The notes under the pieces are model-generated. The model did no database searches. It worked only from the letters and a program-made list of their open reading frames with translations, and had not been told where the DNA came from. This document shows positions 525 to 7,246 of a DNA stretch of 7,246 nt, piece after piece; the stretch's first letter is position 1, and every line of letters starts with the position of its first letter. This stretch comes from Pseudomonadota bacterium (GTDB taxonomy: Bacteria; Pseudomonadota; Alphaproteobacteria; Sphingomonadales; Sphingomonadaceae). The DNA lies in assembly GCA_947474905.1 (NCBI GenBank), contig CANJKQ010000040.1, positions 1 to 7,246 on the forward strand, read 5' to 3'. Both the position numbers and the translations under genes were made by a program.

Positions 525-617
525 GAGAGGGAGAGTTTGGCCCGGACGTGGCGAGCCGGACATGGAGGAGAGAGCGCCTGCCGGCTCTCCCGTTCCCTGC
601 TCTCCGGGAGTGGCCTC
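525..617 (+). promoter_or_regulatory. Structured 5' leader A, upstream of the 137-aa gene
   Basis: This 93-nt non-coding stretch lies between the terminator and the start codon at 618. It aligns by eye with leader B (1085-1180). The first 24 bases match at 19 positions (GAGAG-GAGAG---GGCC-GGACG). Both also contain GAGAGAGCGCC followed by a pyrimidine-rich TCCCG/GCTCTCC segment just before the Shine-Dalgarno sequence. GAGAGC at 570-575 can pair with GCTCTC at 599-604. The Shine-Dalgarno GGGAG is at 606-610, seven bases before the ATG. No clear -35/-10 pair is visible. It may be a transcribed RNA element, a promoter-operator repeat, or both. Confidence 0.55.
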
Positions 618-1180: not shown

Positions 1181-3460
1181 ATGAATGCTCACACCCTTGC
1201 GGCGGCGCTGCCGACCGCCGCCGATCAGCCGACCGACGCTGCCGCCATCCATGCCGCGGCACTTCTCCTCCTTCCTCACATCGAGCGCGGCGAGCGCATC
1301 GACGCCGCGGTCTTGCGCACCGCCATGGAGACCGCCTTCGGCGCGTCCGATACTGCCGGCGCCTGGGACTGGAAGGACGCCTATGACGCCTGCGAAGCCG
1401 CAACCGTCCTCATGCTCCGCAAATACGGAAAGGCGCTTTTGCGCAAAGCCGGGTCTCCGGCTGCGGCGGTTCCTCTGTTCGGCAAGATCGCGGGACTTCT
1501 GCCCACCCACACGCGCCGCTCCGAGGAGGCGCAGGCCTTCCAGCAATTCTCGACGCCGATCCCGCTCGGCCTGGCCGCGATCACTGCGGCCGCCATCACA
1601 CCCGCCGATCGCGTGCTCGAACCATCGGCCGGCACCGGCCTGCTCGCCATCCTCGCCGAGATCGCCGGCGGCACGCTTGTCCTCAACGAACTCGCCGAAA
1701 CCCGGGCCGCACTCATCTCCTCCCTCTTTCCGGCCATTCCCGTGACCCGCTTCGACGCAGCCCAGATCGACGATCATCTCGACCCGGCGACCGTCCCAAC
1801 AATCGTGGTGATGAACCCGCCATTCTCGGTCCTCGCCAATGTCGAGGGGCGTGTCGCCGACGCAGCCTATCGCCATCTCGCATCCGCGCTCGCGCGGCTC
1901 GCCGATGGCGGGCGCCTGGTCGCGATCACCGGCGCGAATTTCGGCCCCGACATACCGGCCTGGCGCGACGCCTTCGTCCGCCTGCAGGAGAGGGGCCGCG
2001 TCGTGTTCACCGCCGCCGTCCATGGCTCAGTCTATGCCAAGCACGGCACGACCGTCGAAACCCGGCTGACCGTGATCGACAAGATCCCGGCCGACGAGCC
2101 ATCCGCATTTCCGGCGTCCCCCGGCACCGCTCCCGACATCGCCACGCTGATGACGTGGATCGCCGAGCATGTGCCGCCGCGCCTGGCTGTCGCGCCTGCT
2201 GTTCAGGTCATGCCGACCGGCGCCACGCCGCGCACCGTTCGCGGCTATCTCGCGCGCACCGCGGCGACATCGGCGACCCGCGTGGGCCTCGCCGATCCCG
2301 AGGGCGTGCCGCTCGCCTATGAGACCGTCGACTGGACCCCGGCCGAGGGCGCCCGCCTCAGCGACGCGATCTACGAGCAATACGGATTGCAGACGATCCG
2401 TATTCCCGGCTCTCAGGCCCATCCCACCAAGCTCGTGCAATCCGCCGCCATGGCCTCGGTCGCCCCGCCCAAGCCGAGCTATCGGCCGACGCTGCCAGCG
2501 ACCATCATGGACTCGCTCTCAGACTCCCAGCTCGAAACCCTGATCTTCGCGGGCGAAGCCCATTCCGATTTTCTCGCAGGTTCCTGGACCATCGACGACA
2601 CTTTCGATGTCGTGGCGGCCGCCGCCGATGATGCAAACGGCGTCGTCCGCTTCCGCCGCGGCTTCTTCATCGGCGACGGCACCGGCGTCGGAAAGGGGCG
2701 CGAGTCGGCCAGCATCGTGCTCGACAACTGGATGCAGGGCCGGCGCAAGGCGGTCTGGATCTCCAAATCCGACAAGCTGATTGAGGATGCGCAGCGCGAC
2801 TGGTCCGCACTCGGCATGGAGCGCCTGCTGGTCACGCCGCTCTCGCGCTTCCCGCGGGGCAAGCCGATCGCTCTGCCGGAAGGCGTCCTATTTACAACCT
2901 ATGCCACGCTGCGTTCCGACGACCGCGGCGAGAAGGTTTCGCGGGTCAAGCAGATCGTCGAATGGTTGGGCTCCGATTTCGACGGAGTGATCATTTTCGA
3001 CGAGGCGCACGCGATGCAGAACGCTGGCGGCGGCAAGGGAGAACGGGGCGATGTCACGCCCTCGCAGCAAGGGCGCGCGGGGCTTCGCCTGCAGCACGCC
3101 TTGCCCAATGCCCGCGTCGTCTATGTCTCCGCCACCGGCGCCACCACGGTCCAGAACCTTGCCTACGCGCAGCGCCTCGGTCTGTGGGGTGGCGACGATT
3201 TTCCCTTCTCGACCCGCGCCGAGTTTGTCGAGGCGATCGAGGCCGGCGGCGTCGCGGCGATGGAGGTGCTTGCCCGCGACCTTCGCGCGCTCGGCCTCTA
3301 CACCGCCCGATCGCTGTCGTTCGACGGCGTCGAATATGAGCTGGTCGAGCACGAGCTGACCGCCGAGCAGCGGCGCATCTACGATGCTTATGCCGGCGCC
3401 TTCCAGGTCTTATGCGCAGCTGCGCATAAGATCGCTTATCGCGAGGTCGCGATAATGTGA
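1181..3460 (+). pseudogene. 5' part of a methyltransferase / strawberry-notch (SNF2-like) helicase gene, interrupted by a RIT element
   Basis: ATG at 1181 with GAGGA at 1168-1172 is preferred over an in-frame start at 1112, which lies inside the leader. The frame gives 759 aa. Residues about 115-330 form a class I SAM-dependent methyltransferase-like domain with motif I EPSAGTG (147-153) and motif IV NPPF (212-215), the form used by N6-adenine or glutamine methyltransferases. Residues about 440-743 begin a strawberry-notch/SNF2 ATPase: Walker A GDGTGVGK (498-505), DEAH box (607-610), motif III SATG (650-653). After AFQV at about 743 the sense changes abruptly into 16 codons read from the mobile element, then TGA. 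The second helicase lobe (motifs IV-VI) is missing, so the helicase should be inactive. The methyltransferase half could still be made. Full-length relatives, as I recall, are roughly twice this size. Likely role: DNA maintenance or modification of the host replicon. Confidence 0.8.
3409..3430. repeat. Perfect 22-bp palindrome at the left boundary
   Basis: CTTATGCGCAG at 3409-3419 is followed directly by its reverse complement CTGCGCATAAG at 3420-3430. It has the same length and the same outer bases (CTTAT...ATAAG) as the core sites at 3435-3456 and 7215-7236. Its half-site also resembles the inner motif of the left end, which reads TAATGCGCAGC on the - strand. No T run follows, so it is not a terminator. 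It probably represents an additional recombinase binding site, or the remains of an earlier insertion or exchange. No copy exists at the right end. Confidence 0.75.
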
Positions 3461-3471
3461 AGGAACGCGGC
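3434..3471 (+). repeat. Left terminal inverted repeat (IR-L), with palindromic core
   Basis: These 38 bases match the reverse complement of 7200-7237 at 36 positions, with differences at 3448 and 3458. Inside lies a 22-bp core at 3435-3456. Its arms TTATCGCGA (3436-3444) and TCGCGATAA (3447-3455) are perfect inverted copies around GG. Such a core flanked by inverted arms is what a pair of tyrosine recombinase protomers would bind. IR-L also supplies the last codons and stop of the truncated helicase frame. Confidence 0.9.
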
Positions 3472-3510
3472 AGCGGCGTGGAATTCTCCTAATGCGGTGC
3501 GATGTTGCTG

Positions 3511-3519
3511 CGCATTATT
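3511..3519 (-). repeat. Inner subterminal motif of the left end
   Basis: CGCATTATT here is an inverted copy of the AATAATGCG motif found at the other end and within the terminal repeats. Its ATAATG core (3513-3518, - strand) is exactly 55 bp inside the ATAATG of IR-L (3452-3457). The right end has the same 55-bp spacing. It is probably an accessory recombinase binding site. A further direct TAATGCG lies at 3490-3496. The remaining DNA between IR-L and ritA shows no other recognisable signal, and no convincing promoter. Confidence 0.6.
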
Positions 3520-3553
3520 TTGATTGCGAACCTCGGCGGTCTCTGGACCAGTT

Positions 3554-3557
3554 GAGG
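3554..3557 (+). promoter_or_regulatory. Ribosome binding site that sets the ritA start
   Basis: GAGG at 3554-3557 stands eight bases before ATG 3566. The frame also opens 42 bases earlier with a TTG at 3524, but no good Shine-Dalgarno precedes that codon and the added residues are not recombinase-like. The ATG is therefore chosen. Confidence 0.7.
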
Positions 3558-3565
3558 ATAAAAGC

Positions 3566-4798
3566 ATGTTGAAATTGCACGACGAGTTGATCGCCGAACT
3601 CTCGAATTTGCTCACGACGCAGAACTACAACTCGGTGGTCGTAGCGAACCATCGCCTCTACGCCCGCGCGTTTCTCGATTATCTGGCCGAGTGCGACGTG
3701 CAGGTGGAAACTGTGACGCTGGCTCAGGTCGATCAGTATCTTGCCTATGCAGTTCAGGACTTCGAAGCCCAGTACGGTCGGCCTCCCTGTGCGCGCTGGC
3801 AGATGTTGCCCCGCACGTCGATCAACAAGCTGCTCCGGCTTGCCCAAGGCAAATGGCCGCCCGAGCCGGAGATGACCGAACCGGAAACCGCGTATCGGCA
3901 GGCGATCTGCTGCGAATACGAGGCATGGCTGCGCGACGAGCGCGGTCTGGCAAGCGCTACCATCGCGGCGCTTATGTGGGAGGCACGGAACTTCCTGCGA
4001 TGGCAGTTCGAACGGGGCGGTGCTGCCAGCCTCGACACGTTGAGCATCGTGGAGGTCGATCTCTACATGGACATGCGCGCGCCTGGATTACGGCGCAAAT
4101 CATTGGCCGATGTCGCTGAGCGGCTCCGGTCGGTGGTGCGCTATCTGCATCGGACGAGGCGCATCCCGATGGATCTCACGCCGCACATCATCGGCCCCAT
4201 GCTCTACGCCTATGAAGACGTGCCCTCGACGCTGGACAAGAACCAAATCGCCGCTGTGTTGGCCGCGACGAAGGAGGACGGATCGCCGCGAGGTCTGCGC
4301 GATTATGGAATACTTCAACTGCTTGCCACATACGGGCTGCGGCAAGGTGAGATCTGCCGCCTTCGGCTTGAGGACGTGAACTGGCGCGGAGAATCCCTGC
4401 GTATCCGTCACACCAAGACCAATGCGTACTCCTACATGCCGCTATTGGCGCCGGTTGGTGAAGCGCTGCTCGACTATCTGCGTCATGGGCGCCCTCAGGT
4501 CGAGGGGCGAGAAATCTTTATCCGGTCCTGCGCGCCCTACATCGCAATGACAAACCTGTACGGCATGATCCGCGGGCGGTTAGCAGCCGCAGGCGTCGAG
4601 CCGCCGGGAAAGCGAGGGGCACATGTCTTCCGCCACGCGCGCGCGGTCGAAATGCTGCGGGCGTCGGTCCCGCAAAAGATCATCGGCGACGTGCTCGGGC
4701 ATCGATCCACCGAATCCACCAATGCCTATCTCAAGCTGGCGACAGATGATCTCCGAGCCGTGGCGCTCGATGTACCTGGCCTGGAGGTGCTGTCATGA
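3566..4798 (+). CDS. ritA: Tyrosine recombinase RitA (first of the RIT trio), 410 aa
   Basis: A phage-integrase-family site-specific recombinase, which breaks and rejoins DNA through a covalent 3'-phosphotyrosine link. The catalytic domain (about residues 220-400) holds all key residues: R259 in TYGLRQGEIC, K284 in HTKTN, H353 and R356 in HVFRHARA, H379 in LGHRS, and nucleophile Y388 in TNAYLKL. The N-terminus looks double: one helical SAM-like core-binding region at about 4-100 and a second at about 108-210 (EYEAWLRDERGLASATI, typical of that domain). At 410 aa it is longer than minimal Xer-type proteins of about 300 aa, consistent with the extra domain. Its stop overlaps the start of ritB by 4 bp. 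The family and trio assignment are firm; the naming follows gene order in RIT elements. Expected partners are RitB and RitC acting at the element ends. Confidence 0.9.
   Translation: MLKLHDELIAELSNLLTTQNYNSVVVANHRLYARAFLDYLAECDVQVETVTLAQVDQYLAYAVQDFEAQYGRPPCARWQMLPRTSINKLLRLAQGKWPPEPEMTEPETAYRQAICCEYEAWLRDERGLASATIAALMWEARNFLRWQFERGGAASLDTLSIVEVDLYMDMRAPGLRRKSLADVAERLRSVVRYLHRTRRIPMDLTPHIIGPMLYAYEDVPSTLDKNQIAAVLAATKEDGSPRGLRDYGILQLLATYGLRQGEICRLRLEDVNWRGESLRIRHTKTNAYSYMPLLAPVGEALLDYLRHGRPQVEGREIFIRSCAPYIAMTNLYGMIRGRLAAAGVEPPGKRGAHVFRHARAVEMLRASVPQKIIGDVLGHRSTESTNAYLKLATDDLRAVALDVPGLEVLS
4783..4798 (+). promoter_or_regulatory. ritA/ritB translational coupling junction
   Basis: GGAGG at 4783-4787 lies inside the end of ritA, seven bases before the ATGA at 4795-4798 that joins the ritB start to the ritA stop. 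The 16-base junction is nearly the same as the one at 6135-6150 (14 of 16 identical). It would couple translation of the two genes and keep their products in fixed proportion. Confidence 0.8.
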
Positions 4799-6150
4799 GC
4801 GCCTGGCACGATCCCGATTGCACCGTTGTTGACGCCTTCCTGGAAAAATCGCAGTTCCGGCCGGGAAGCAGACCGACTTATCGCTGGTTCCTTCGCAGCT
4901 TCGAGGATGTAGCCCGACGTCATCCGGCGGTTGACCGGCAGATGCTCGACGTCTGGCTGAAGGAAATGGAAAAATGTTGGCGAATGCCGACGCTGCTCAA
5001 TCAGGTCTGCATTGTCGATCGCTTCCTCGACCACCTCGTCGAAATCGGGCTGATCGCCGATAATCCCGTTGCCGTGCTTCGCCACCGGTACAACGTAAAA
5101 CAAAGCAAGCCGATCTGGCGAGCGTTGTCTTCCCCCAATCCCGACGAAGCCCTGGCCGCGTTACGACGCCCTGCTCCCTTCGGTAGCGCGCTGGGGGACT
5201 TCATGCGTGAGCATGTCGCGTTGATGCGCAGCCGGGGCTATCAGTATGAGACTCAGGCTCACTGGTTATTGCGGTTCGATCGGTTCCTCCAGGCGAACCC
5301 CGAACTTGCCCAGGCATCGCTTGAGACAATGCTGGCGCGCTGGGCAACTGCCAAGCCGACCCGCAATCACGCGGCTGAATGTCAGAAGCTGGGGCGCATC
5401 CTGACCAAGGCGCGGTATCGCCTTGATCCCAGCATCCCGCCAAAACGCTTCAACGCCCGGCCGGAGCGGGAAGTGGCGCGCGAGCATCGACGGCCGCATA
5501 TCTTCAGTCCGGCCGACGTCCGGCGGTTGCTCGATGTTGCCCGCTCGTATCCGTCGCCGGATGCTCCGCTGCGGCCAATGGTCCTCTACACGATGGTGGT
5601 TCTGGCCTACTGTGCCGGACTGCGCCGCAGTGAACTCGCCGGGCTTGATCTGGGTGACGTGGACCTTCAATCGGACACTATCACGATCCGGGAAACGAAG
5701 TTCTACAAGACCAGGATCTTGCCGCTAACCGGCAGCGTCATGGCCGAATTACGGGCCTATATCGATGCAAGGCGGCGCGCCGGCGCCCCGCAGGATCCGC
5801 GGTCCGGGCTCTTCTGGCACGAGCACTTCAATGATCGCTATACCCCCGTGACGGTCTCAACGATGATTACCAACGTCATGCGCCGCGCCGGGTTCAAGCC
5901 CACGACGGGGCGGGCGGGACCACGTGTTCATGACCTGCGCCACTCGATGGTCGTGAACCGAATCCTTCAATGGTATCGATCCGGCGTTAATCCGCAGGAC
6001 AAACTGCGCTTCCTCTCCACCTATATGGGTCACCGGGACATCAACTCCACGCTGGTCTACATCACTGTCACGCAGGACCTGCTGCAGGAAGCAAGCGAGC
6101 GGTTCCGTACCGTCGGCGCCCGATGCCTCACCGTGGAGGCGCGGTCATGA
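4795..6150 (+). CDS. ritB: Tyrosine recombinase RitB (second of the RIT trio), 451 aa
   Basis: The second phage-integrase-family recombinase. The start is fixed by the ATGA overlap with ritA and GGAGG at 4783-4787. The catalytic domain (about 235-435) is complete: R277 in CAGLRRSEL, K302 in ETKFYKTRILPL, H379 and R382 in VHDLRHSM, H413 in YMGHRD, Y422 in LVYITV. The N-terminal half again shows two helical core-binding-like stretches, about 5-105 and 130-225 (FMREHVALMRSRGYQYETQA begins the second). This makes it the longest of the three. Between the H-R and H-Y motifs is a longer insert (QWYRSGVNPQDKLRFLS) than in RitA or RitC. It presumably works with RitA and RitC in one synaptic complex. 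A 4-bp overlap links it to ritC. Confidence 0.9.
   Translation: MSAWHDPDCTVVDAFLEKSQFRPGSRPTYRWFLRSFEDVARRHPAVDRQMLDVWLKEMEKCWRMPTLLNQVCIVDRFLDHLVEIGLIADNPVAVLRHRYNVKQSKPIWRALSSPNPDEALAALRRPAPFGSALGDFMREHVALMRSRGYQYETQAHWLLRFDRFLQANPELAQASLETMLARWATAKPTRNHAAECQKLGRILTKARYRLDPSIPPKRFNARPEREVAREHRRPHIFSPADVRRLLDVARSYPSPDAPLRPMVLYTMVVLAYCAGLRRSELAGLDLGDVDLQSDTITIRETKFYKTRILPLTGSVMAELRAYIDARRRAGAPQDPRSGLFWHEHFNDRYTPVTVSTMITNVMRRAGFKPTTGRAGPRVHDLRHSMVVNRILQWYRSGVNPQDKLRFLSTYMGHRDINSTLVYITVTQDLLQEASERFRTVGARCLTVEARS
6135..6150 (+). promoter_or_regulatory. ritB/ritC translational coupling junction
   Basis: GGAGG at 6135-6139 is seven bases before the ATGA at 6147-6150. This selects ATG 6147 as the ritC start over an in-frame ATG at 6123. 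The junction repeats the ritA/ritB one almost base for base. Confidence 0.8.
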
Positions 6151-7151
6151 CGAAGGGCAATCCGTTCCCCGCGTTGTTGCGGGCGTTCTTCCAGGAATGG
6201 TTGGCCGAGCAACGCAGTGCTTCTGTCCATACGATCCGGTCCTACCGCGACACATGGCGGCTGTTGCTTCGGTTTATCGCCGAGCGAAATGGTGGCGGGG
6301 TTGCGCGGATCACACTGGCCGATGTCTCGGCCGGAGAGGTTCGCGCGTTCCTCCACCATACCGAGCATGGGCGCAGGGGCACGATCGGTACACGCAACTG
6401 CCGGCTTGCCGCGATCCGCAGCTTCTTCAGCTTCGTGGCTGACAAGGATCCCGAATACATCGCGCAATGCGCCGAGGTCCTGACTGTCCCGCTCAAGCGG
6501 GAGCCCACCGCTGCACCCTGCTATCTTGAGCCGGAGGAGGTCGAAGCGATCCTCGCTCAGCCCGACCGGTCGACAATCGAGGGGATGCGCGACCATGTGC
6601 TGCTCTCGTTCCTGTACAACAGCGGCGCGCGCATCCAGGAAGCTCTCGACCTGTGTTCCAACGCGGTCCGGTTCGAAGCGCCGCACTACGCTCGCCTCTA
6701 TGGCAAGGGCCGCAAGGAACGGGTCTGTCCACTCTGGCCGGAAACCGTGACGTTGCTCAGGAAGTTGTTGGAACGTCGCCCACGCGCGTCAGATCAGCGG
6801 ATCTTCGTCAATAGATACGGTGAGCCGCTGGGCGCCTCGGGAGTGCGGTTCAAGCTTGCCGCCTACGTAGAGGAAGCGGCCAAGTCCGTACCAACGCTTC
6901 GGTCAAAACATGTGACGCCGCACAGCTTCCGGCACGCGACAGCCGTTCACCTTGTCGCTGCCGGGGTCGACATCACCGTCATTCGCAGTTGGCTGGGACA
7001 CGTCAGCCTCGACACGACCAACCACTACGCACAGGCCAATCTGGAGACCAAACGAAAGGCCTTGGAGCTGGTGGGTGCGCCGTCGGCGAGCAACGTTCCA
7101 CCTTCGTGGAAGCGAGATGCCAGTCTGATGGAGTGGCTCGACACCCTGTGA
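6147..7151 (+). CDS. ritC: Tyrosine recombinase RitC (third of the RIT trio), 334 aa
   Basis: The third and smallest recombinase, closest in size and layout to Xer-type proteins. One N-terminal SAM-like core-binding domain (about 5-110, with FFQEWLAEQRSASVHTIRSY) is followed by the catalytic domain (about 127-310). All catalytic residues are present: R162 in NSGARIQEAL, K187 in YGKGRKER, H259 and R262 in PHSFRHAT, H285 in WLGHVS, Y294 in TNHYAQA. The GKGRKERVCPL hairpin and LGHVSLDTT segment are very typical of integrase/XerD relatives. The start at 6147 is set by the coupling junction with ritB. An in-frame ATG at 6123 would add eight residues and has no better ribosome site. The stop at 7149-7151 abuts the right-end recombination sequences, leaving no room for a passenger gene. 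Confidence 0.9.
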   Translation: MTKGNPFPALLRAFFQEWLAEQRSASVHTIRSYRDTWRLLLRFIAERNGGGVARITLADVSAGEVRAFLHHTEHGRRGTIGTRNCRLAAIRSFFSFVADKDPEYIAQCAEVLTVPLKREPTAAPCYLEPEEVEAILAQPDRSTIEGMRDHVLLSFLYNSGARIQEALDLCSNAVRFEAPHYARLYGKGRKERVCPLWPETVTLLRKLLERRPRASDQRIFVNRYGEPLGASGVRFKLAAYVEEAAKSVPTLRSKHVTPHSFRHATAVHLVAAGVDITVIRSWLGHVSLDTTNHYAQANLETKRKALELVGAPSASNVPPSWKRDASLMEWLDTL

Positions 7152-7165
7152 AATAATGCGAAGGA
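7152..7165 (+). repeat. Inner subterminal motif of the right end
   Basis: AATAATGCGAAGGA begins one base after the ritC stop. It is an inverted copy of the inner part of IR-R (7207-7219, 13 bp perfect from 7153). Its ATAATG (7153-7158) is separated from the inverted ATAATG of IR-R (7214-7219) by 55 bp, matching the left end. Probable accessory recombinase binding site. Confidence 0.65.
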
Positions 7166-7219
7166 CGTGGTGGTCAGTCTCCCGGCATTGCGCGCCTACG
7201 CCGCGTTCCTTCGCATTAT
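7153..7219 (+). other. Possible long-loop hairpin after ritC
   Basis: The 13-bp perfect inverted arms at 7153-7165 and 7207-7219 enclose 41 bases. Transcribed from ritC they could fold and help end the transcript, but there is no T run, so this is not called a terminator. The arms are better explained as recombinase sites. The intervening 41 bases show no further signal. Confidence 0.4.
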
Positions 7220-7237
7220 CGCCACCTCGCGATAAGC
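7200..7237 (-). repeat. Right terminal inverted repeat (IR-R), with palindromic core
   Basis: This is the reverse complement of IR-L with 36 of 38 matches. Its core at 7215-7236 reads TTATCGCCA-CC-TCGCGATAA in the centre, with one mismatch between the arms, whereas the left core is perfect. The outer end finishes in ATAAG followed by C, matching the CTTAT at the outer edge of the left side. It defines the right boundary of the element. Confidence 0.9.
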
Positions 7238-7246
7238 CATCATCCA
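7238..7246 (+). pseudogene. Likely resumption of the interrupted helicase gene (nine bases)
   Basis: After IR-R the window ends in CATCATCCA. Relatives of this helicase often continue after the AFQ segment with residues such as IIHN or VIHN, which ATCATCCA would begin to encode. This is consistent with the host gene resuming here. Nine bases cannot prove it, nor show whether any target sequence was duplicated. Confidence 0.35.

What the first reader, a model, noticed from the sequence alone, without database searches (positions are those of the whole stretch)
3409..7237. Apparently intact recombinase-in-trio element
Three adjacent tyrosine recombinases, each with the full R-K-H-R-H-Y set, share one coupled operon between matching terminal repeats and carry nothing else. 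RIT elements are known as a class, but why three recombinases are needed and how they move remain poorly understood as far as I know. A copy with both ends and all catalytic residues is a good subject. The identity of this subtype relative to described RIT elements is unknown to me.
Basis: partly seen in the sequence, partly recalled or inferred. Interest (0 to 1): 0.7.

Follow-up and report, generated by a model that had tools for sequence, protein, structure and literature searches.

The report
Three-recombinase element with palindromic adaptor
This is an intact small mobile element made of three DNA-cutting enzymes; comparing many copies suggests that it travels together with a tiny 20-base palindrome beside it, probably as a circle that can open at either of two joints, which gives a concrete and testable account of how these little-understood elements move.

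Summary
RitA, RitB and RitC (3566-7151, ATGA overlaps, six catalytic residues each) lie between terminal inverted repeats (RIT proper 3436-7235) and break a strawberry-notch-type helicase gene. It is a recombinase-in-trio element: its proteins are reciprocal best matches of the pHG1 trio. The new point lies just outside the repeats: a 20-bp palindrome (P20, 3410-3429), two half-sites tail to tail, joined by 6-bp linkers. In related copies the order is gene5'-N6a-P20-N6b-RIT-N6c-gene3'. P20 stays on the gene-5' side although RIT lies either way (30 plus, 24 minus), and P20's direction follows RIT. Of 60 plasmids listed, 29 have the site uninterrupted; none of 40 matching records has P20 alone. 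Within genomes, copies 99.95-100% identical mostly sit in gene alleles 69-86% alike, and 14 of 16 copy pairs fit one rule: a circle of RIT plus P20 with two dif-like junctions, either of which integrates, each carrying a 6-bp sequence from an earlier host. The layout recurs on pHG1 and in contigs of other phyla. All this is inferred from sequence; no circle was seen. The 2013 RIT anatomy paper could not be read, so priority is unsettled.

The parts
1181..3403 (+). 5' part of the interrupted target gene: strawberry-notch-type helicase/methylase of plasmids (AAA_34)
   Evidence: Pfam AAA_34 E 5e-120; in the 30 plasmid rows listed the similarity stops at 3403 or 3402
3404..3409 (+). N6a CAGGTC, 6-bp linker between gene 5' part and palindrome, two in-frame codons
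   Evidence: register across loci
3410..3429 (.). P20 TTATGCGCAGCTGCGCATAA, palindromic adaptor made of two recombinase-type half-sites tail to tail
   Evidence: perfect palindrome; same place in relatives; half-site motif
3430..3435 (+). N6b GATCGC, 6-bp linker between P20 and the left terminal repeat (reverse complement GCGATC)
3436..3484 (+). left terminal inverted repeat; outer half-site 3436-3445, 7-bp spacer, inner half-site 3453-3462
3566..4798 (+). ritA, 410 aa tyrosine recombinase; model suggests two helical bundles before the catalytic domain
4795..6150 (+). ritB, 451 aa tyrosine recombinase with an N-terminal extension relative to pHG1 RitB (314 aa)
6147..7151 (+). ritC, 334 aa tyrosine recombinase, the most conserved of the three among relatives
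7187..7235 (-). right terminal inverted repeat
7236..7241 (+). N6c GCCATC, 6-bp linker between right terminal repeat and gene 3' part
7242..7246 (+). first 5 bases (ATCCA) of the gene 3' part
   Evidence: same start in many relatives

Best explanation
This is an intact recombinase-in-trio element whose mobile unit is RIT plus P20. Supported by comparison: P20 and RIT move together, into one position of the helicase gene, in both orientations of RIT, with 6-bp linkers that come from different gene alleles. Inferred: the unit leaves as a circle in which RIT and P20 are joined by two 6-bp linkers (J1 = right repeat to P20, J2 = left repeat to P20). Each junction looks like a dif site: half-site ending ATAA, 6-bp centre, half-site beginning TTAT, with the repeat's half-site on one side and P20's on the other. 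The recombinases cut at the edges of the 6-bp centre and exchange strands with a 6-bp target, placing P20 next to the gene 5' part and the terminal repeat next to the 3' part. Integration at J1 gives RIT in plus orientation, at J2 in minus, so one circle inserts both ways into a polar target. One outer linker then comes from the circle and the other from the target; the unused junction stays inside as N6b. Excision between N6a and N6c would restore the gene, at most changing two codons. Which recombinase binds which half-site is unknown.
For: 54 of 70 loci with two ends were tabulated with a palindrome of at least 7/10 pairs six bp outside one end only; RIT is plus in 30, minus in 24. In the end-by-end count, 53 gene-5' ends have P20 and 48 gene-3' ends lack it, with 6 flagged exceptions that I read one by one. 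Asymmetric P20s keep one direction relative to RIT in both orientations: TTATGGCGAG.. in plus L019, L021, L024, L028, L121 and minus L018, L023, L124; also L041/L042 and L128/L129. Same-genome copies: RIT 99.95-100% identical; 14 of 16 pairs obey the J1/J2 rule, against 6 of 247 and 15 of 67 pairs between genomes; 0 of 20000 shuffles reach 14, maximum 9. Clearest pair, S. xenophagum C1: plus copy a GCGATC, rc(b) GCAATC, c GGCATC; minus copy a GCAATC, rc(b) GGCATC, c GCGATC. Three different RITs sit at the same base of near-identical plasmid genes whose empty form reads GCGATC. 29 uninterrupted sites among 60 rows listed; no solo P20 in the 40 records matched. dif layout in passages of PMC2731167.
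Against: No circle junction was found: 0 hits in viral contigs and 0 of 39 genomes or plasmid records. Two of 16 same-genome pairs (L126-L137, L137-L138) break the rule and need a second version of the circle. The swapped rule is also met by 7 of 16 pairs, and orientations drawn at random reach 14 in 298 of 20000 draws, because in several genomes J1 equals J2. Six of 70 loci have no palindrome on either side (L020, L027, L040, L053, L055, L066) and L036 has it on both; I read all but L055 as products of recombination between copies, not tested. L010 has 8-bp linkers and P20 on both sides; L009's flank is another sequence. Target arms do not look like the half-site motif, so target recognition is unexplained. 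Why P20 sits on the coding-strand upstream side is unexplained. Nothing here is an experiment.
Confidence: 0.8

Rival explanations
1. The mobile unit is only repeat-to-repeat RIT; P20 is a landing pad already present in the target gene, and RIT inserts next to it.
For: P20 is on the same side of the target gene whatever the direction of RIT.
Against: Uninterrupted genes show no P20: 29 of the 60 plasmids listed align through the joint in one piece, and none of the 40 records matched carries P20 between the two gene parts (a copy with very different flanks could be missed). P20 differs with the RIT type in the same gene (L113 TTATGCGCAG.., L121 TTATGGCGAG..) and turns with RIT.
Confidence: 0.05
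2. The unit inserts in one direction only and RIT is later inverted in place by recombination between its two ends.
For: The ends are inverted repeats, and N6b is the exact reverse complement of N6c in 13 of 54 loci.
Against: In minus copies the asymmetric P20 is turned as well while staying on the gene-5' side, which inversion of RIT alone cannot do; linkers swap roles between plus and minus copies as expected for two junctions of one circle. For copies with a symmetric P20, as in the window, only the linker argument applies.
Confidence: 0.07
3. RIT copies spread by homologous recombination of the target gene between plasmids, not by transposition.
For: Recombination between RIT copies seems to happen: loci that I read as having two gene-5' flanks (L010, L036) or two gene-3' flanks (L020, L027, L040, L053, L066). 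L126 and L138 share an identical gene-5' part.
Against: Copies in one genome are 99.95-100% identical up to the linkers, in most pairs beside gene parts only 69-86% alike over the aligned part of 300 bp, often in opposite orientation.
Confidence: 0.03
4. As for the two-junction circle, but the movement is copy-out (donor keeps its copy), as proposed for SE elements, instead of cut-and-paste excision.
For: Up to four identical copies in one strain; SE elements, also with several recombinases, are reported to leave no empty site (PMC10214605, passages).
Against: Uninterrupted alleles on the same plasmid backbone are common, though they may never have been occupied.
Confidence: 0.3

Closest known systems
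RIT (recombinase in trio) elements, as described for Cupriavidus metallidurans CH34 and C. necator pHG1
   Same: Order ritA-ritB-ritC with short overlaps, catalytic residues, inverted repeats at the ends, no passenger; reciprocal best matches to pHG1 RitA/B/C at 30/31/39% identity, among these six proteins. A pHG1 RIT end itself shows N6 CGCGGT - palindrome TCATGCCGCTAGCGGCATGA - ACCGCG - repeat.
   Different: Different subtype: RitB 451 aa against 314 aa; target is a plasmid helicase gene rather than IS66 tnpA or radC (PMC2864759 passage). The text I could read (PMC3414803, section 11) reports an inverted repeat and an overlapping palindrome, not a separate P20 with 6-bp linkers.
GInt / SE elements
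   Same: Several recombinases act together; for SE elements 6 bp copied from the donor's left flank is reported (PMC10214605, passages).
   Different: They encode four conserved proteins (PMC5385486, PMC10214605, passages); here there are only three recombinases.
Tn554-type transposons
   Same: Neighbouring tyrosine recombinases; 6-bp donor footprint (PMC10214605, passages).
   Different: Third protein TnpC is the counterpart of Srap/GinD, not a recombinase of this kind (passage plus recall); resistance cargo (recalled).
Tn916-type coupling sequences (recalled, no call)
   Same: Circle junction carries a 6-bp sequence from the former host that ends up beside the new insertion.
   Different: One junction per circle there; here two junctions would share one palindromic adaptor.
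Chromosomal dif site (XerC/XerD)
   Same: Half-site - 6-bp centre - half-site with inner ATAA / TTAT (PMC2731167 table passage).
   Different: Junction is not dif itself and lies on a mobile element; target arms are unlike dif.

Membership tests
RIT element | three adjacent tyrosine recombinase genes in the order A-B-C with short overlaps | tested here: met
   ATGA overlaps at 4795 and 6147; each protein best matches its namesake on pHG1
RIT element | all three recombinases keep the catalytic residues | tested here: met
   R-K-H-R-H-Y invariant in alignments of 16, 18 and 16 sequences and lined up with solved Xer-type chains
RIT element | terminal inverted repeats of about 28-34 bp | tested here: met
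   34 of 38 bp agree
RIT element | RitA with two core-binding domains (PMC8138268 passage) | tested here: inconclusive
   model shows two N-terminal helical bundles, but mean pLDDT 68.7 and pTM 0.35
RIT element | RitC with an extra C-terminal helix (PMC8138268 passage) | not tested
   RitC was not modelled
RIT element | mobility shown by transposition in the laboratory | not testable with these tools
   not known for any RIT to the authors of PMC10214605 (passage)
GInt / SE element | fourth conserved gene besides the recombinases | tested here: not met
   between the repeats one search lists only the three genes and ORFs overlapping them
Tn554-type transposon | two recombinases plus TnpC | tested here: not met
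   all three proteins match PF00589
dif-like junction | inverted half-sites with ATAA/TTAT at a 6-bp centre | tested here: met
   met in the window; half-sites of relatives mostly fit NNATNNNNAG and start TTAT, TAAT, AAAT or GAAT; dif from PMC2731167

The most novel reading that the evidence does not exclude
RIT elements as a class are two-segment circles. A palindromic adaptor of two half-sites travels with the trio and turns the circle into a molecule with two equivalent dif-like junctions, so that it inserts into a polar 6-bp target in either orientation. Three recombinases are kept because the junctions and targets present distinct half-site kinds (outer repeat, inner repeat, adaptor, target arm). 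The 6-bp linkers are a record of earlier hosts.
Probability: 0.5. Interest if true: 0.78.

Novelty: new member of a known kind. Interest (0 to 1): 0.66.

Why it matters
How RIT elements move, and why three recombinases are needed, is open in the papers I could read (PMC3414803 section 11 finds no convincing binding sites apart from an inverted repeat and an overlapping palindrome; PMC10214605 passages say no transposition of RITs is known to have been reproduced). The comparison here gives exact ends, a 20-bp part that I did not find named in the texts I opened, the target rule and a circle structure with predicted sequences. That turns the question into a simple PCR and a plasmid assay. The 6-bp linkers also let one read the insertion history of copies from sequence alone.

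Tried and rejected
P20 as part of the target: rejected by empty sites and by covariation with RIT. Hairpin-made P20 (copied anew at each move): judged unlikely because asymmetric P20s and unequal linkers are inherited. In-place inversion: see rivals. Hypervariable scar in empty genes: not found; in the 30 uninterrupted genes (L140-L143, L145-L170) the six bases are GCGATC in 25 and code for A-I in 29 (the call's own tally, over 31, includes L144, which is half of an occupied site). Circle junction in viral contigs and RIT genomes: none. Host dif with a P20-like half in 17 RIT genomes: none with the strict pattern. Target determinant: at RitC identity 80-85%, pairs with different targets have lower RitA (63.6 against 71.8%) and RitB (65.1 against 75.3%); the gap is smaller at 70-80%, and at 65-70% there are only 4 same-target pairs; confounded by kinship, so only a lead. 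Viral relatives of RitC: none. Paper search for strawberry notch with tyrosine recombinases: nothing that looked relevant in the 8 of 940 listed. Script found nothing because of a wrong spacing in my pattern; mended.
Full report
1. The observation. The window carries three coupled tyrosine recombinase genes, RitA 3566-4798, RitB 4795-6150 and RitC 6147-7151, joined by ATGA overlaps. All match PF00589 and all keep R-K-H-R-H-Y, invariant in alignments of 16, 18 and 16 sequences and lined up with solved Xer-type chains. The inverted repeats are 55-nt arms with 85% complementarity. The first 38 bp agree at 34 positions, and RIT proper is 3436-7235.

2. Setting. The element breaks a strawberry-notch-type helicase gene (AAA_34) at 3403. 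The 5' part matches 559 plasmid records, and in the 30 rows listed the match stops at 3403 or 3402. The own assembly is not held; the nearest genome, G001, carries a 96% copy.

3. The part outside the repeats. Printing the ends of related copies in register showed gene5' - N6a - P20 - N6b - RIT - N6c - gene3', where P20 is a 20-bp palindrome and each N6 is six bases. In the window: CAGGTC (3404-3409), TTATGCGCAGCTGCGCATAA (3410-3429), GATCGC (3430-3435), GCCATC (7236-7241). One search paired two ends in 70 loci. In 54 a palindrome of at least 7 of 10 pairs stands six bases outside one end only. The other 16 are six with too short a flank (L022, L026, L033, L034, L057 and the window, whose right side is cut) and ten that did not classify. 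Of these ten, L043, L128 and L129 have a weaker palindrome (6 of 10) on one side; L036 has it on both; L020, L027, L040, L053 and L066 have none and by my reading two gene-3' flanks; L055 is unexplained. Among the 54, L121/L122 are the same insertion on two plasmids of one strain, and L010 in fact has P20 on both sides with 8-bp linkers.

4. Sidedness. RIT is plus in 30 and minus in 24 of the 54 loci, yet P20 stays on the gene-5' side. Of 158 deduplicated ends with at least 120 bp of flank, 53 were scored gene-5' with P20 and 48 gene-3' without; six were flagged as exceptions and 51 as other genes. I read the six: L010 has P20 with an 8-bp linker; L048, L064, L075 and L081 lie in other target genes mis-scored by tblastx; L055 remains unexplained. 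Since four of six flagged ends were other genes, a few of the 101 concordant ends may be too.

5. P20 belongs to the element. Many copies of the RIT type about 84% identical to the window carry TTATGGCGAGCTGCGCATAA, which in the RIT frame reads the same way in plus (L019, L021, L024, L028, L121) and minus copies (L018, L023, L124); L123 of similar identity has another P20. L041/L042 agree, as do L128/L129. So P20 turns with RIT but changes its side of RIT, which is what opening a circle at either of two joints gives. The exact pattern TTATGSSSAGCTGCGCATAA occurs in 1 of 391 genomes of G001's family (G001 itself) and in 26 of 45 genomes that carry RIT relatives.

6. Empty sites. A 406-bp query joining the L113 flanks matched 340 plasmid records. 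Of the 60 rows listed, 29 cover it to 100% in one piece, 17 of them at 98% identity or more. With P20 placed between the two gene parts, 40 records matched somewhere and none over 80% of the query. L113, L118 and L121 hold three different RITs (95.5, 93.2 and 84.0% identical to the window's) in near-identical plasmid genes at the same base. The empty form, seen in L140-L143, reads GCGATC. In the 30 uninterrupted genes the six bases are GCGATC in 25 and code for A-I in 29 (L144, half of an occupied site, left out).

7. Recent movement. In seven genomes with more than one fetched copy, 16 pairs have RIT identity 99.95-100% beside gene parts that are 69-86% alike over the aligned stretch of 300 bp. 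Exceptions are L126-L138, with identical gene-5' and 91% gene-3' parts, and two pairs (L126-L137, L137-L138) with no gene-5' alignment.

8. The J1/J2 rule. If the unit is a circle with junctions J1 (right repeat to P20) and J2 (left repeat to P20), a plus copy must hold J2 as rc(N6b) and J1 as one outer linker, and a minus copy the reverse. S. xenophagum C1 fits exactly (L116, L119). In all, 14 of 16 pairs fit; between genomes 6 of 247 and 15 of 67 do (in the second group some genomes share one RIT lineage). Shuffling the linker triplets among loci of the same type gave a mean of 2.2 and never reached 14 in 20000 (maximum 9). The rule with orientations swapped is met by 7 of 16, and random orientations reached 14 in 298 of 20000 draws, so support for the orientation part is moderate. 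The two misses, L126-L137 and L137-L138, need two circle versions in that strain.

9. Half-sites. Outer repeat, inner repeat and P20 halves share the core NAATNNNNAG or NTATNNNNAG with few departures; P20 is two of them with the AG ends touching. The junction, ATAA - six bases - TTAT, has the layout of dif as tabulated in PMC2731167 (passages).

10. Generality. A scan of 20 more distant loci gave a P20 row in eight: L061 (Accumulibacter), L064, L065, L073 and L074 (Cupriavidus), L077 (acidobacterium), L083 (Sulfopaludibacter), L084 (Eisenbacteria). L076 (acidimicrobiian) shows it in the inverted-repeat rows by my reading. No row came for L051, L053, L060, L066, L068, L069, L071, L079, L080 and pHG1; L082 is masked. 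Several of these are metagenome bins, whose names may be wrong. A looser scan of pHG1 shows one end with CGCGGT - TCATGCCGCTAGCGGCATGA - ACCGCG - repeat. A second, divergent RIT family sits about 310 bp further on in the same helicase gene of several plasmids, again with its own P20.

11. Membership and mechanism. The RIT features tested are met, except that RitA's second core-binding domain is only suggested by a poor model. The mechanism (circle, two junctions, 6-bp exchange) is inferred from sequence alone. No circle junction was seen. RitA and RitB models show two N-terminal helical bundles (RitA mean pLDDT 68.7, RitB 82.9). Which protein binds which half-site is unknown; RitA and RitB differ more than RitC between RITs of different targets, a weak lead.

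12. Literature. I read section 11 of PMC3414803 and passages of PMC10214605, PMC8138268, PMC5385486, PMC2864759 and PMC2731167. PMC3414803 reports an inverted repeat and overlapping palindrome but otherwise no convincing sites. Ricker 2013, Nielsen 2017 and Hemme 2016 are not held; Van Houdt 2009 was not looked up. Searches for RIT with palindromes, circles or strawberry notch were seen as listings only, apart from the papers named; in what I opened nothing describes P20. The unread papers may.

Noticed in passing
L113:7174-9866; also L014, L019, L023, L115, L116, L117, L119, L120, L123: A second, divergent trio (L113: 515 aa, 304 aa and a third recombinase running off the locus) lies in the same helicase gene about 310 bp downstream, with its own palindrome (TAATGTTGAGCTCAACATTA and variants) and 6-bp linkers. 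Some of its linkers (GCGATC, GCAATC) look like those of the first site, as if it had once sat there.
   Followed up: partly
L010, L036 and L020, L027, L040, L053, L066: Loci that I read as having two gene-5' flanks or two gene-3' flanks, as expected from homologous recombination between RIT copies of opposite orientation; RITs may fuse or invert plasmids.
   Followed up: no
target genes of the loci: P20 lies on the coding-strand upstream side in the target genes whose direction I could read (helicase, ArdC-like, IS21-like, IS66; names other than the helicase and IS66 are my reading of short flanks). No reason found.
   Followed up: no
window 568-609 and 1131-1172: A 42-nt leader, 76% alike, stands before each of two neighbouring genes upstream of the element.
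   Followed up: no
L012: RIT copy 6022 bp long between its ends, so it carries an insertion of about 2.2 kb.
   Followed up: no
L139:3345-12678 (pHG1): Partial RIT copies lie on both sides of one complete trio; only one scored end shows the palindrome.
   Followed up: partly
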